DNA of 34,252 nt from the NCBI GenBank assembly GCA_016867235.1, contig VGJY01000027.1:1-34252 (forward strand), read 5' to 3'. The notes under the pieces are model-generated. The model searched no databases. It was not told the DNA's origin and worked only from the letters and a program-made list of their open reading frames with translations. Shown one piece after another: positions 272-34,252 of this stretch. The stretch is from Candidatus Tanganyikabacteria bacterium. GTDB taxonomy: Bacteria > Cyanobacteriota > Sericytochromatia > S15B-MN24 > VGJW01. The translations under genes and the position numbers were made by a program. The first letter of the stretch is position 1; every line of letters starts with the position of its first letter.

Positions 272-1483
272 ATGTCGCTCCAGAAGGTCGTGCCGTCCGG
301 CACACGCCGGCCGCGGCGGGCGGCTTCGGCAGCCCAGGTGCGGCGGCGGCACTTCGCGATCCTCTTGCTCCTGCTGGCGGGCCTGGTCGCCCTTGCGGCC
401 GGTCTGATGATGGTCGCCCGCTACGTCGCGCCCTGGGGCAACCTGTCCTGGCTGCTGGGCAACCCGAAGTTCCTGGACCGGCCGCGTAACGTGCTGGTGG
501 TGGGGCTCGACCGGGAAGGGCGCGGGGCGCGCGGCGACCTGTACATGCTAGCCCGTCTCGACACGCGCGTTCCGGCCGTGACGATCCTCTCGGTCCCGGT
601 CGAGACCCAGACCACCATACCGGGCTACGGCGTCGGGAAACTGGCCGACGTACCGGCCGTCGGGGGAGGTCCGCTGGCGCGGCAGACCATCGAGGCGCTC
701 CTTGGCGTCGGCGTGGACCGCCTGGTTATCCTCGATCCTGGCCTGCAGGGGCGGGTCATCGATCGCCTGGGAGGCATCGACGTGCTCGTGACCCGCGCCA
801 TGGCTTTCAAGGCCCCCGGCGCCGCCGCCACCGTCCAGGTACCGGCCGGTAAGCAACGCCTCGACGGGAAGCGGGCGATCGCCTTCGCAGCGGCGCGATC
901 CGGCGACGCCGGGGATCTCAAGCGCATCTCGCGCCAGCAGTACCTGGCGGCGGCCATCTTGCGGCAGGCCGGACGCAACCCCTGGAAACTGGCGAGCGCC
1001 ACCAAGGCGCTGGTCAAGGAGGCCGGCGGCGACCTGGCGCAGCCTGAAGCCGAGGAAGTCGTCCGCTTCCTGGAGAGCCATCCCACGACGCGATTCACGA
1101 CGATTCCGGGCGACCCCGGTTACGGCGGGGCGTGGATTCCGAGCCCGACGCGCATTCAGGCCCTGCTCGAGCGCGTCGAGTCGCTCAAGCAAAAGCCCGG
1201 CGCCAAGACGCCGATGGCCGAGATCCGGTTCAGCCCCAAGCGCGAGAAGGCGGCCAACGGGCTGGCAAATCAGCTCGTCGATCGCGGAGTGACCGTGGTG
1301 AGGACCGCCCCGCTGGAGGAAGAGGACGCGACCAACGTGGTGGCCCGGGAGCCGTCGGGGCGCGTCGATCACATCGTGCGTACCCTCCTGCCGGCAGCTC
1401 CGTGGGTCCTTTCCGACGATCCGTCGCCCTACTCGGCCGACTACACCATCGTCGTAGGCCTGGATGCCCCCGAGATCCGCTGA
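272..1483 (+). CDS. Divergent LytR-CpsA-Psr (LCP) family protein with LytR_C domain
   Basis: LCP proteins are membrane-anchored enzymes that transfer undecaprenyl-linked glycopolymers to the cell wall. From the chosen start (residue 1 = ATG 272; ATGs at 197, 245 and 254 are in frame) the 403-residue protein has a basic N-terminus and one membrane helix at about 29-47. An LCP-like domain spans about 72-265, and a LytR_C-type domain (from AEIRFSP to YTIVVGLD) forms the C-terminus. The active site is altered relative to the canonical LCP protein at 21918: the IPRDT motif reads VPVET (108-112), so the catalytic Arg and Asp are gone, and the first Arg of the RFR motif is Ala. The later Arg residues of the GDLKRISRQQ stretch remain. 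No SD precedes ATG 272, but TACGAT at 258-263 would place transcription near 270. The 3' end overlaps the ABC ATPase by 20 bases. The LCP fold is a confident call; loss of activity is inference. Confidence 0.8.
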   Translation: MSLQKVVPSGTRRPRRAASAAQVRRRHFAILLLLLAGLVALAAGLMMVARYVAPWGNLSWLLGNPKFLDRPRNVLVVGLDREGRGARGDLYMLARLDTRVPAVTILSVPVETQTTIPGYGVGKLADVPAVGGGPLARQTIEALLGVGVDRLVILDPGLQGRVIDRLGGIDVLVTRAMAFKAPGAAATVQVPAGKQRLDGKRAIAFAAARSGDAGDLKRISRQQYLAAAILRQAGRNPWKLASATKALVKEAGGDLAQPEAEEVVRFLESHPTTRFTTIPGDPGYGGAWIPSPTRIQALLERVESLKQKPGAKTPMAEIRFSPKREKAANGLANQLVDRGVTVVRTAPLEEEDATNVVAREPSGRVDHIVRTLLPAAPWVLSDDPSPYSADYTIVVGLDAPEIR

Positions 1484-2225: not shown

Positions 2226-2336
2226 TTCGACCCCACGAACGAATTTCGAGTTTTTCTCGAACAAACGCTTGACGTTCGAACGGTCGGTCGATTATTCTCG
2301 ATGACATCTCGAACGTACTCTCGAAAGGAGCCCGCG
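2226..2336 (+). promoter_or_regulatory. recA promoter with clustered TTCGA/TCGAA operator-like repeats
   Basis: A -35 TTGACG (2269-2274) and a -10 TATTCT (2293-2298) are spaced by 18 bp, giving a start near 2305. The perfect palindrome GTTCGAAC (2274-2281) overlaps the -35. A second inverted repeat, TTCGAG-N5-CTCGAA (2245-2261), lies just upstream. TCGAA recurs at 2309-2313 and 2321-2325, and TTCGA at 2226-2230. This arrangement fits repressor control, and LexA is the expected regulator of recA by analogy. The motif is not the textbook Bacillus or Escherichia SOS box, so the repressor identity is inference. The SD AAAGGAG (2324-2330) lies six bases before ATG 2337. Confidence 0.65.
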
Positions 2337-3440
2337 ATGCCGCCCAAAGACACCGCCCCACCCGCCAAGGTCCCGTCCAAGGAAGTCGCCGGCTCGCAGC
2401 CAGCGCGCCCCACGCCCTCTCCCGAGCACGCCGAGAAGCTTCGCGCTATCGAGCTTGCCATCGGCGGCATCGAAAAGCAGTTCGGCAAGGGTTCGATCAT
2501 GAAGCTGGGCGACAACGCCCGCATGAAGGTCGCTACAGTACCGACGGGCATCCTCCCGCTTGACGTCGCTCTTGGCGTCGGCGGACTGCCCCGCGGCCGC
2601 GTCGTCGAGATCTACGGCCCGGAGTCCGGCGGCAAGACGACGGTCAGCCTCCAGGTGGTGGCGCAGGTGCAGCGGTCGGGAGGCATCGCGGCGTTCATCG
2701 ACGCCGAGCATGCGCTGGATCCCATCTACGCCGCCAAGCTCGGCGTGGACATCGACAACCTCCTGGTCTCGCAGCCCGACACCGGCGAGCAGGCCCTGGA
2801 AATCGCCGAGGCCCTCGTGCGCTCCGGCGCGGTCGATCTGGTCGTGGTCGATTCCGTGGCGGCCCTGGTGCCCAAGGCCGAGCTGGAGGGCGAGATGGGC
2901 GATGCCCACGTGGGCCTCCAGGCCCGCCTCATGAGCCAGGCCCTGCGCAAGCTCACCGCCGCCATCGGCAAGAGCGCCTCGATCGTCATCTTCATCAATC
3001 AGCTCCGGGAGAAGGTAGGCGTCATGTTCGGCAATCCCGAGGTCACCACGGGCGGTCGGGCCCTTCGCTTCTACGCTTCGGTCCGCATCGAGGTCCGGCG
3101 CATCGAGACCCTCAAGAAGGACGGCGTGGAGTTCGGCAACCGGGTGAAGGCCAAGGTGGTCAAAAACAAGGTGGCCCCGCCCTTCAAGGTCTCCGAATTC
3201 GATCTCTATTTCGGCGAAGGTGTGTCCCGCGAGGGCTGCATCCTGGACATGGCCGCCGACATGGGCATCCTCACCAAGAGCGGGACCTGGTACGCCTACG
3301 GCGAGACCAAGCTCGGGCAGGGCCGCGACTCTGCCAGGCTCTTCCTGGTGCAGAACCAGGATCTGGCGACCGAACTGGATCGGCTCGTACGCACCAAGCT
3401 CCAGCTCATCATTTCCGAATCCGTGCGCGACGACGACTAG
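2337..3440 (+). CDS. recA: Recombinase RecA
   Basis: RecA forms ATP-dependent filaments on single-stranded DNA for homologous recombination and induces the SOS response. The 367-residue product carries Walker [10 protein letters not shown] (94-102) and the conserved loop stretches [14 protein letters not shown] and [14 protein letters not shown]. Start choice: an upstream in-frame ATG (2301) lies before the predicted transcript start, whereas ATG 2337 has the SD AAAGGAG six bases upstream. The N-terminus carries about 23 extra Pro/Ala/Lys-rich residues before the usual RecA start, compared with the E. coli protein. The C-terminus ends in a short acidic tail (RDDD). The gene is followed by a strong GC hairpin and then a long repeat region. 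Confidence 0.98.
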
Positions 3441-3460
3441 AGGAGAGTCCCAGCCGCGCC

Positions 3461-3494
3461 AGCCCGGGGGCCGAGTCGCTCCGGTCCCCGGGCT
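3461..3494 (+). terminator. GC-rich hairpin after recA (possible terminator)
   Basis: A 9-bp perfect stem (3461-3469 with 3486-3494) extends inward past one mismatch. It lies 20 bases after the recA stop. No T-run follows, so it is not a canonical intrinsic terminator. It may slow or end transcription, or protect the 3' end of the transcript. Confidence 0.4.
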
Positions 3495-3556
3495 ACCCTC
3501 CGGGGTGGGGCTTCGTGGGTGATCTCAGGAAGCCCCTGGGTACTCAGGATCCTTGC

Positions 3557-3618
3557 GCCCGGGACCGCCGGCGTCCCGCCGGCCCCATGAGGCCGGCAAG
3601 ATGCCGGCGGTCCCGGGC
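3557..3618. repeat. REP-like nested palindrome
   Basis: Outer arms 3557-3572 and 3603-3618 are a perfect 16-bp inverted repeat. Nested within is a second perfect 7-bp stem (3578-3584 with 3591-3597) around a 6-base loop. The GCCGGC-rich, double-stem layout resembles dispersed REP or MITE-like intergenic elements. Only one full copy is in the window, so its dispersal is inference. Confidence 0.6.
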
Positions 3619-3750
3619 CGCATCGACTCTTGTTGCCGGTTCGTTCAGCGGTGTCGGCGCAGGCGGTGGAAAACTCTCTGGGGGTCTTGATTGCTTGAAC
3701 GCGGTCCGACCGGGCGCTCCTGGTAGGCTGCCATTCTTCGGGCTTCCTTC

Positions 3751-4191
3751 CTTGGCCGGCCGGCCGGGGTTCGCAACCTGGTCAGCGTCACGTGACGGGG
3801 ATCGGGCAGCGGGAAGCCGCGCAGGGTGCTGGTTTTGCGGCAATTGCGGGTCTTCTGTCCTGTGCTTCGCGGCGGGCTTCCGGAACCGGGATAGCGTCAC
3901 GTGACGGAGACTGCCGCCGGGAAGCAGCGCAGGGAGCGGGTTATGCCGCAATTGCGGGTTTTCGGTCCTGTGCTTCGCGGCGGGCGGCCCGGGGAAATCT
4001 GGCCGGCCGGCCGGCCGGGTTTCCGGAACCGGGCTTGCGTCACGTGACGAAGACTGCCGCCGGGAAGCCGCGCAGGGAGCGGGTTGTTCCGCACTTGCGG
4101 GTTTCCGGTCCTGGGCTTCGCGGCGGGCGGCCCGGGGAAATCTGGCCGGCCGGCCGGCCGGGCTTCCGGAACCCGGCCAGCGTCATGTGAC
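3751..4191. repeat. Tandem repeat array, 143-bp unit
   Basis: Units are bounded by the palindrome GTCACGTGAC at 3787, 3896 and 4039, and by GTCATGTGAC at 4182. The last two periods are exactly 143 bp (3896-4038 and 4039-4181), differing at roughly a dozen positions. The first period is 109 bp because it lacks a 34-bp block (GGCGGCCCGGGG to the GGCCGGCC run). A partial unit end is recognisable at 3751-3786. Each unit also holds a CCGCAATTGCGG-type palindrome and TTCCGGAA, and full units hold a run of overlapping GGCCGGCC. No convincing gene runs through it: the unit length is not a multiple of three. It fills the gap between the convergent recA and sigma factor genes; the rest of 3441-4205 shows only the two hairpins listed separately. 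Confidence 0.9.
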
Positions 4192-4205
4192 GGGATTCTT
4201 CAGGT

Positions 4206-5294
4206 TCAGTCCATGTACTCCGCGATGTGGCGCTCGATCATGGCGGTGCGAAGCTTGTTGAGCGCCTTGCCCTCGATCTGGCGGACGCGTTCGCGCGTGA
4301 CGCCGAAGCGGCGGCCGATTTCCTCGAGGGTGTGGACCTGGCCGTCGTCCAGGCCGAAGCGCAACGTGACGACCTCGCGCTCCCGGGCCGAGAGGACCGA
4401 CAGGACCGACTGCACGTCCTCGCGCAGCAGGAGTTGCGCCACGGTGGACGCGGGGCCGGGAGCCTCGCGGTCCACGATGAAGTCGCCCAGGCGGCTTTCC
4501 TCCTCCTTGCCGACGGGCGTCTCCAGCGAGATGGTGTCCTTCACGACGCGCTTGACTTCCTTGATCTTCTCGACCGGCACGTTGGCGGCCTCGGCGATCT
4601 CCTCGTCGGCCGGCCGGCGGCCCAGCTTCTGGGTCAGGCGCTGCGAGATGGCGCGGAGGCGGTTGATGGTCTCCACCAGGTGCACGGGAATGCGGATGGT
4701 GCGGGCCTTGTCGGCCAGGGCGCGGGTGATTGCCTGGCGGATCCACCACATCGCGTAGGTCGAGAATTTGTAGCCGCGGCGGTAATCGAATTTCTCGACG
4801 GCGCGGATGAGGCCCAGGTTGCCCTCCTGGATGAGATCGAGGAAGGACAGCCCCCGGCCCAGGTACTTCTTGGCGACGCTCACCACGAGGCGCAGGTTGG
4901 CTTCGATCATCCGCTTGCGCGCCTCCTGGCCGAGCTTGCCGTTTTCGGCCATCGCCTTGGCGAGCATCACCTCCTCTTCCGCGGTGAGCAGCGGAATGGC
5001 GCCGATCGAACGCAGGTACGCCTGGATGGGATCGGACGGCGCCACGCGCTCGGCGCGCTTCTCGCGCGGCGGGCGGACCACGGCCGGCGCCTCGTGCTCC
5101 TCCTCCACCGCCACCTCATCGGCCGGTTCCGCCGCCTCGGCGTGCGGCTCCTCCTCCTCGAAGAAGGTCACCCGGAGCGTCTGGTCCTCGGCCTCCTGCT
5201 CCTTCTCGACCTGCTCGAGCGCCACATCGGCCGGATCCGGCAAGTCGGCCAGGAGCTCCTTGAGGAGACCCTGATCGCCGTTCGTCCCGCTCAT
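4206..5294 (-). CDS. Sigma-70 family RNA polymerase sigma factor (RpoD/SigA-like)
   Basis: Sigma factors direct RNA polymerase to promoters. The 362-residue protein has an acidic N-terminal segment (about 1-85, with a Glu-rich stretch). Region 1.2 begins at [11 protein letters not shown] (about 88). Region 2 follows with [17 protein letters not shown] and [15 protein letters not shown], then region 3. Region 4.2 ends the protein with [20 protein letters not shown]. Region 2.4 and the 4.2 helix-turn-helix match the primary or group-2 class that reads TTGACA/TATAAT promoters, consistent with the promoters seen here. Whether it is the principal sigma (rpoD/sigA) or a close group-2 paralogue cannot be settled from one window. 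A G-rich SD (GGGGGGG) lies about six bases before the ATG. No convincing promoter was found in the 149-base gap upstream. Confidence 0.95.
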
Positions 5295-33500: not shown

Positions 33501-34252
33501 TCACGCGTCAGCGGGAAGACGCGCGCGCGGGGCACGGCCCCGACACCGTGCCCCGACCGGCCCACGCGCTGCAGGAACGTCGAGAGCGATCGCGTGGCGC
33601 CGATGAGCACCACCAGGTCGATCTCGCCGATGTCGATGCCCAGCTCCAGCGAGGCGGTGGCCACGCAGACCTTGACGTCGGCCGCCTTGAGCCGCGCCTC
33701 CGCGGCCAGGCGCGTCTCCCGGGACAGGCTCCCGTGGTGCGCGACCACCTGCTCCGCGCCGAGGCGCTGCGAGAGCTGGAATGCCACCCGTTCGGCCAGG
33801 CGGCGCGTGTTGACGAACACCAGGGTCGTGCGCCGCGCCTTGGCCAGGCGCGCCACTTCGTCGAGGGCCTCGCCCCAGAGTTCGTGGGTCGCGATGGGGC
33901 CCAGTTCCTGCTGCGGCGTCCAGACCGAGAGATCCAGGCGCCGCCTGTGCCCGGTATCGACGATCAGGCAATCGGGCGTGCCGTCCGGCGCGAGGGCTGA
34001 CGCTCCCACGAGGAAGCGCGCAACCTCCTCGATGGGCCGCTGGGTCGCGGACAGGCCGATGCGGGTAAGTCCCGGGCCGGCAGGGACGCCGGCCCCACCG
34101 GAGCCCGGCGCGTCGGCCCCACCGGAGCCCGGCGCGTCGACCCCACCCGAGCCCGGGGGGTCGGGCACACCAAGGCCCGGGGGGTCAGGCACACCAAGGC
34201 CCGGGGGGTCGGGCACACCAAGGCCCGGGGGGTCAGGCACACCAAGGCCCGG
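30536..34252 (-). CDS. lhr: Lhr-type ATP-dependent helicase, N-terminus beyond the window
   Basis: Lhr is a large superfamily 2 helicase of DNA repair. More than 1,230 residues are visible, and the frame is open to the window edge. Motif III (RIGLSATQRPIEEVA, codons around 34050) opens the visible helicase part. Helicase domain 2 follows (TLVFVNTRRLAERVAFQLS, VATASLELGIDIGEIDLVV, FLQRVGRSGHG), then the Lhr-specific stretches GGAIPENADYEV, MAGDIFQLGNTSWQI and HAPLGSRINRAWG. A long C-terminal region of winged-helix character ends at ATALARPVKRLSARA-like basic residues. Motifs I and II lie outside the window. Directly before motif III is an unusual Pro/Gly-rich insertion of repeated PDPPGLGV and DAPGSGGA units encoded by 24-bp repeats. 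Apart from that insertion the gene looks intact. Confidence 0.9.
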   Translation of the reverse strand, partial: PGLGVPDPPGLGVPDPPGLGVPDPPGLGVPDPPGSGGVDAPGSGGADAPGSGGAGVPAGPGLTRIGLSATQRPIEEVARFLVGASALAPDGTPDCLIVDTGHRRRLDLSVWTPQQELGPIATHELWGEALDEVARLAKARRTTLVFVNTRRLAERVAFQLSQRLGAEQVVAHHGSLSRETRLAAEARLKAADVKVCVATASLELGIDIGEIDLVVLIGATRSLSTFLQRVGRSGHGVGAVPRARVFPLTRDDLAGVAAGDLDRLCIPAWPLDVLAQQLVAACGTQEWRVADLWDLARRAYPYRDLPRNAFDQVVATLADGVSGRAGRSTAYLHLDGINGRVRGRRAARLVALTNGGAIPENADYEVVMHGSGLRVGTVNEDFAVESMAGDIFQLGNTSWQIVRVEAGRVRVEDAGGAPPSIPFWLGEAPGRTAEVSTHVWRLREELFQRLRDRKEAIDWLIADTGLDAAAAELLVAYVEEGVRVLGAVPTARRLIAERFFDESGGMQLVIHAPLGSRINRAWGMALRKKFCRTFDFELQASATDDGINLSLGPQHSFPLADIFGFLKAARAREVLEQAVLQAPLFGIRWRHAATRSLFVLRHQGGRKVPPPLQRMRADDLLASVFPAQAGCQDNRAPGNVELPDHPLVFEAMRDCLHEFLDVDGLVRVLEDIEQGRIDVIGRDTPQPSVFAHQLLNAMPYAFLDDAPLEERRARSVALRRALPERVADLGRLDPEAIAAAAEDAWPAHRDGDELHDALLTLGAFPADLAGPDEATWFRDLQAAGRVLARQVGDRGVWFAAERPDPAPEEIVRGWCECSGPLSVADLARRTALPEATVRQAVAALEGSGAILVGRFTPGRDCDEVCDRRILARIHRATIGRLRREIEPVPPAAYLDFLFAWQHAAPDARTNGPDGLLLVIELLAGYESAAPAWEEAIFPLRVRDYSPAQLDRLALGGEVVWGRFSRRPAGAGDAGRRAGITRAVPIAFGLRTDLPWLLASPAAPAAGLSSVAAEILERLTARGALFHAELAAHLGVLPAQVDDAIGQLVAAGLVTSDGFAALRRLAPRATAPRDERRSLFSRGRRFPTPAGGRWALLAAAPLPDPEALEQRAAQLLRRYGILVREVLVREPQAPPWRDLLAILRRAEARGEIRGGRFVAGLVGEQFALPEAIDALRAGRRDPRAPAGPIRLAATDPLNLSGILLPGPRIPALPGTWCNYADGRFETALARPVKRLSARA
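34091..34252. repeat. 24-bp tandem repeat inside the Lhr gene
   Basis: Six full 24-bp units and one partial unit run to the window edge (34091, 34115, 34139, 34163, 34187, 34211, 34235). The first three share the form with CCCCACC; the last four share GGCACACCAAGGCCCGG and alternate between TCGGG and TCAGG at the junction. The array is in frame and codes for eight-residue Pro/Gly-rich units. It may continue beyond the window. Confidence 0.9.

What the first reader, a model, noticed from the sequence alone, without database searches (positions are those of the whole stretch)
3751..4191. 143-bp tandem repeat array with E-box-like palindromes between recA and the sigma factor gene
Seen: GTCACGTGAC punctuates exact 143-bp periods (one 109-bp unit lacks a 34-bp block), and each unit carries several other perfect or near-perfect palindromes (CCGCAATTGCGG type, GGCCGGCC runs, TTCCGGAA). 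No gene explains it and the period is not a codon multiple. It occupies nearly the whole gap between two convergent key genes. Possible roles (inference): a protein-binding array, a chromosome-organisation or replication-related site, a structured RNA, or a satellite under active expansion. The indel boundary in the short unit shows ongoing unit turnover.
Basis: partly seen in the sequence, partly recalled or inferred. Interest (0 to 1): 0.75.

Follow-up and report, generated by a model that had tools for sequence, protein, structure and literature searches.

The report
Palindromic tandem repeat between recA and rpoD
A real but fairly ordinary stretch of duplicated, hairpin-rich DNA fills part of the gap where recA and a housekeeping sigma-factor gene end facing each other; its sequence was found nowhere else, but about twenty comparable intergenic arrays sit in 2.4 Mb of this genome, preferentially between genes that converge.

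Summary
The array is real: GCGTCACGTGACG recurs at 3785, 3894, 4037 and, with one mismatch, 4180, at spacings of 109, 143 and 143 bp. Units are 86-93% identical, non-coding and very rich in perfect palindromes. It covers 440 of the 765 bp between recA and an rpoD-type gene. The rest holds a hairpin after recA and a copy of a dispersed REP-like hairpin.

The unit was found nowhere else: not in the rest of the genome, 385 other genomes of the phylum, plasmids or phages. A same-family genome keeps the gene order with a 64-bp gap holding one perfect 10-bp hairpin, so the insert looks lineage-specific. In 2.4 Mb of this genome, 22 gaps hold intergenic tandem arrays, about 5-fold over-represented between convergent genes (p = 4e-4 without this locus; 0.0014 with gap length controlled). 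CGTCACGTGACG is not a genome-wide motif, and no canonical parS was found.

Best reading: a hairpin-rich 3'-end region expanded by tandem duplication (the short unit shows a slippage deletion at CGGGC repeats), working if at all as a bidirectional transcription boundary. A site-specific protein-binding role is not excluded but has no positive evidence.

The parts
2301..3440 (+). recA (recombinase RecA)
   Evidence: ORF; TIGR02012 534 bits, above its cut-off
3461..3494 (+). hairpin right after recA, 13-nt arms, no U-tract; candidate 3'-end hairpin of recA
   Evidence: inverted repeat I18
3557..3618 (.). 62-bp near-perfect hairpin, a copy of a dispersed REP/MITE-like element with about six good copies and many partial ones in the genome
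   Evidence: fold z-score -9.0; 66 matches at E<=1 in own genome
3754..3784 (+). partial left unit (GGCCGGCCGGCCGGGG..., the end of the unit)
   Evidence: families D2 and D4; local alignment to unit end
3785..3893 (+). unit 1, 109 bp; lacks the ~35-bp GGCC block, deletion ends in a CGGGC microhomology
3894..4036 (+). unit 2, 143 bp (GCGTCACGTGACG; arm-loop-arm with CCGCAATTGCGG in the loop; GGCCGGCCGGCCGGCC; TTCCGGAA)
4037..4179 (+). unit 3, 143 bp, 11 differences from unit 2
4180..4193 (+). partial right unit GCGTCATGTGACGG, 12 nt from the stop codon of the sigma gene
   Evidence: family D3; sequence
4206..5294 (-). RpoD/SigA-type RNA polymerase sigma factor, convergent to recA
   Evidence: ORF; TIGR02393 RpoD_Cterm 354.1 bits, cut-off 354

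Best explanation
A lineage-specific, non-coding tandem duplication of palindrome-rich DNA lying in the shared 3' region of recA and an rpoD-type sigma gene. Shown: anatomy, uniqueness, a much larger gap than in the one informative relative, and convergent bias of such arrays in this genome. Inferred: a hairpin-bearing 3'-end sequence was duplicated by slippage or unequal exchange, and one unit then lost a hairpin block between CGGGC repeats. It persists in the gap because there is no promoter to disrupt, and its hairpins probably act redundantly as a bidirectional end-of-transcription and 3'-end-protecting boundary between the two converging genes.
For: Array anatomy and palindrome excess. Unit found only at this locus in its own genome, absent from 385 other phylum genomes, from the other 17 genomes of the class by covariance model, and from plasmids and phages. 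G001 keeps LytR-ABC-recA><sigma with a 64-bp gap holding a perfect 10-bp hairpin GAGGAGGGTC...GACCCTCCTC. Intergenic tandem arrays occur in 22 gaps of the 2.42 Mb sampled: 11 of 181 convergent gaps against 11 of 991 others; without this locus p = 4e-4, and p = 0.0014 when gap length is controlled. Strong stems are commonest in convergent gaps: 10% convergent, 5% co-directional, 2% divergent, 0% in coding controls and shuffles. Deletion microhomology CGGGC. Stem-loops and REPs concentrate at 3' ends and in convergent gaps in other bacteria (PMC1590033, PMC3733652).
Against: No terminator-like site with a U-tract on either strand. The unit folds only moderately better than shuffles (z -3.4 for unit 2, -1.5 for unit 3), and mutation simulations are split (0.365 and 0.005). 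No transcription data. The convergent bias could reflect relaxed constraint alone.
Confidence: 0.58

Rival explanations
1. Neutral minisatellite: the array is a chance slippage product in GC-rich palindromic DNA, tolerated because a convergent gap has no promoter, with no function.
For: Unique unit with no relatives, 7-14% divergence between units, deletion at a microhomology, unrelated units in most other arrays of the genome.
Against: The palindromic core and the predicted stems vary slightly less than the rest (p 0.051, 0.057, 0.027; the structure was taken from the same sequences, so this is biased).
Confidence: 0.27
2. Protein-binding array: CGTCACGTGACG is an operator or chromosome-organisation site bound at 109/143-bp spacing.
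For: Three perfect 12-bp palindromes in register plus one with a single change, against about 0.7 expected per genome from base composition (my estimate) and 4 single sites elsewhere; the core varies less than its flank, 1 of 13 against 9 of 21 columns (p=0.051). The TCACGTGA centre equals that of parS.
Against: parS (TGTTTCACGTGAAACA, up to 2 mismatches) has no match in this genome and no ParB homologue passes the family cut-off; the array lacks the TGTT/AACA arms; the 8-mer TCACGTGA is not enriched genome-wide; the other 4 sites share no clear context.
Confidence: 0.08
3. Structured RNA: the unit is transcribed as a repeated folded RNA, for instance a 3'-UTR-derived small RNA.
For: Unit 2 folds better than all 200 shuffles (z -3.4); between units 2 and 3 every changed pair stays a standard pair, one by a double change A-U to C-G.
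Against: Unit 3 z is only -1.5; unit 1 breaks several pairs; no Rfam match, no promoter-like site, no homologue by covariance model.
Confidence: 0.05

Closest known systems
REP / BIME elements (repetitive extragenic palindromes and their clusters)
   Same: GC-rich palindromes in non-coding DNA, favouring 3' ends and convergent gaps; clusters of repeated palindromes; a dispersed REP-like hairpin lies beside the array.
   Different: The array unit is single-locus, up to 143 bp long and in direct orientation only, with no dispersed family.
Bacterial intergenic minisatellites / MIRU-VNTR loci
   Same: Direct tandem units of tens to ~150 bp in an intergenic space, unit indels, low copy number.
   Different: MIRUs (from general knowledge) are a related family at many loci; this unit occurs once. 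Copy-number variation between strains could not be tested.
Bidirectional (convergent) transcription terminators
   Same: Hairpins between the stop codons of convergent genes; the same-family genome G001 has a single hairpin in a 64-bp gap.
   Different: No U-tracts; about 440 bp of repeated palindromes instead of one hairpin.
parS (ParB-binding centromere site)
   Same: Palindrome with the TCACGTGA centre.
   Different: Outer arms GCG/CGC instead of TGTT/AACA; no canonical parS in this genome and no ParB above the family cut-off.

Membership tests
REP/BIME | palindromic stem-loop in extragenic DNA | tested here: met
   palindrome excess over shuffles; no called gene in the array
REP/BIME | many dispersed copies per genome | tested here: not met
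   array unit found only at this locus; the neighbouring hairpin 3557-3618 does meet it
REP/BIME | paired units in opposite orientation | tested here: not met
   three units all in the same orientation
REP/BIME | associated Y1 transposase (true of some REP families only) | tested here: inconclusive
   three Y1_Tnp genes in the genome, none at this locus
Intergenic minisatellite | direct tandem units in non-coding DNA | tested here: met
Intergenic minisatellite | copy-number variation between strains | not testable with these tools
   no other genome of the same genus was returned; nearest are same family
Intrinsic bidirectional terminator | GC-rich stem followed by a U-tract | tested here: not met
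   0 terminator-like sites in 3300-4400 on either strand
Intrinsic bidirectional terminator | transcripts of both genes end there | not testable with these tools
   no RNA data
parS centromere site | match to TGTTTCACGTGAAACA | tested here: not met
   no match with up to 2 mismatches in the genome; arms of the array palindrome differ
parS centromere site | chromosomal ParB encoded in the genome | tested here: not met
   TIGR00180 matches only below its cut-off
Structured RNA family | match to a described RNA family | tested here: not met
   Rfam scan found only two tRNAs in the window

The most novel reading that the evidence does not exclude
In a lineage without a recognisable parS/ParB pair, the clustered CGTCACGTGACG palindromes are a binding array for an uncharacterised chromosome-organising protein.
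Probability: 0.03. Interest if true: 0.7.

Novelty: new member of a known kind. Interest (0 to 1): 0.25.

Why it matters
It shows how an intergenic hairpin region between two central, convergent genes can swell into a palindromic tandem array in one lineage while a relative keeps a 64-bp gap. The convergent bias of such arrays across this genome is a small, testable pattern about where tandem DNA is tolerated or useful. By itself the locus does not overturn anything.

Tried and rejected
parS: no match to the consensus in this genome and no ParB above cut-off. Genome-wide CACGTG regulon: only 4 other 12-bp sites, without common context, and the TCACGTGA core is not enriched. Cyanobacterial HIP1-type palindrome GCGATCGC: abundant, but as expected from a high-order Markov model. 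Mobile-element, phage or plasmid origin: no match. Dispersed repeat: the unit is single-locus. CGTC-tagged REP: in that family CGTC is an unpaired tag (PMC3733652), here it is inside the palindrome, so not filed there. Degenerate older units left of 3754: alignment no better than shuffles, p=0.17. The one weak hit in another genome of the class (G011) covers only about 20 bp of close similarity. Conservation of stems: hints near p=0.05, biased because the structure comes from the same sequences; mutation simulations disagree. The genome-contig scan with the sigma protein brought only distant relatives and no close species.

Full report
Observation. The array is present. GCGTCACGTGACG lies at 3785, 3894 and 4037, with a one-mismatch copy GCGTCATGTGACG at 4180; spacings are 109, 143 and 143. 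Best bounds are 3754-4193. Units 2 and 3 are 93% identical; unit 1 is about 86% identical to them over the shared part and lacks a ~35-bp GGCC-rich block. The position of the deletion can be shifted over CGGGC, so it looks like slippage between two CGGGC copies flanking a palindrome. Because the partial unit at the left edge carries the GGCC block, loss from unit 1 is simpler than gain in the others (inference). Unit 2 has six palindrome centres of >=10 bp against 0.39 in dinucleotide shuffles. The units differ from one another, which argues against a simple assembly duplication, but reads could not be checked.

Surroundings. recA (TIGR02012) ends at 3440 and an RpoD/SigA-type sigma gene ends at 4206 on the other strand. 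The array is 440 bp of the 765-bp gap. A hairpin without U-tract follows recA (3461-3494), and a 62-bp near-perfect hairpin (3557-3618, z -9.0) belongs to a dispersed REP/MITE-like family in this genome. The array comes to within 12 nt of the sigma stop codon. No terminator with a U-tract and no sigma-70-like promoter was found in the gap; Rfam finds only two tRNAs in the window.

Uniqueness and history. The unit matches nothing else in the 6.12-Mb genome beyond short, mostly GGCC-type stretches. It is absent, apart from one short resemblance, from 385 other genomes of the phylum, from the other 17 genomes of the class with a covariance model, and from plasmids, phages and viral contigs. In the same-family genome G001 the order LytR-ABC-recA><sigma is kept, but the gap is 64 bp and holds a perfect 10-bp inverted repeat. 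The window's gap is therefore most simply a lineage-specific expansion; with one informative relative, the direction is inferred.

Class. I took 2.42 Mb of the genome as stretches, called genes with a simple dicodon model (88% coding, 2146 genes) and ran TRF. Twenty-two gaps of at least 30 bp hold an array of period >=25: 11 of 181 convergent, 4 of 313 divergent, 7 of 678 co-directional. Leaving out the window's own contig: 10 of 175 against 11 of 973, odds ratio 5.3, p = 4e-4; with gap length stratified, 10 observed against 3.6 expected, p = 0.0014. A striking parallel is L187:5130-6150, an ~80-bp-unit array with GGCCGGCC palindromes between two convergent genes. Strong stems are likewise commonest in convergent gaps. 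The gene caller is home-made, so the counts are approximate, and some 'intergenic' arrays may lie in missed genes.

Function. Published surveys place stem-loops and REPs preferentially at 3' ends and in convergent spaces (PMC1590033; PMC3733652). The location, the hairpins and the relative's single-hairpin gap fit a bidirectional 3'-end boundary; this is inference, as no transcript data exist. Structural constraint is inconclusive: the four changes in paired columns between units 2 and 3 keep pairing, including one double change, but paired-versus-unpaired tests reach only p 0.03-0.06 with a structure derived from the same sequences, and mutation simulations give 0.365 in one direction and 0.005 in the other. 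A neutral array is the main rival.

Protein-binding readings. TCACGTGA is the centre of the ParB site parS, so I tested it: no parS with up to two mismatches in this genome, and no ParB above the family cut-off. CGTCACGTGACG occurs at four other single sites in the genome without an obvious common context; the TCACGTGA core is not enriched. There is no positive evidence for a binding array, though clustering at one locus keeps it possible.

Verdict. Real, non-random and single-locus, but of a known kind: an intergenic, palindrome-rich tandem repeat in a convergent gap.

Noticed in passing
window 3557-3618: 62-bp near-perfect hairpin belonging to a dispersed REP/MITE-like family (GGGACCGCCGGC...GCCGGCGGTCCC), with about six good copies and tens of partial ones in the genome.
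   Followed up: partly
L187:5130-6150 (contig C25): Another intergenic array, ~80-bp units with CATGCGT and GGCCGGCC motifs, between convergent genes, interrupted by a copy of a dispersed element (GGCGCCTATCGGACGCAGGC...).
   Followed up: partly
L301 (contig C417, Y1 transposase at contig 725-1081, minus strand): A Y1_Tnp (IS200/REP-associated type) gene has next to its 3' end a sequence like the dispersed palindromic element seen in L187 and L235, which suggests a REP-transposase pair.
   Followed up: no
window 2301-3440 and contig C3 42093-43061: Two full-length recA genes in this genome (protein match 77% identical); several other genomes of the family and order also show two.
   Followed up: no
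genome G000 and same-family G001-G004: No canonical parS within two mismatches in G000, G002 and G003, and no ParB above the family cut-off in any of the five genomes (G003 is only 64% complete).
   Followed up: partly
window 34090-34252: 24-bp tandem repeat (multiple of 3) running into the contig end; the contig probably broke there.
   Followed up: no
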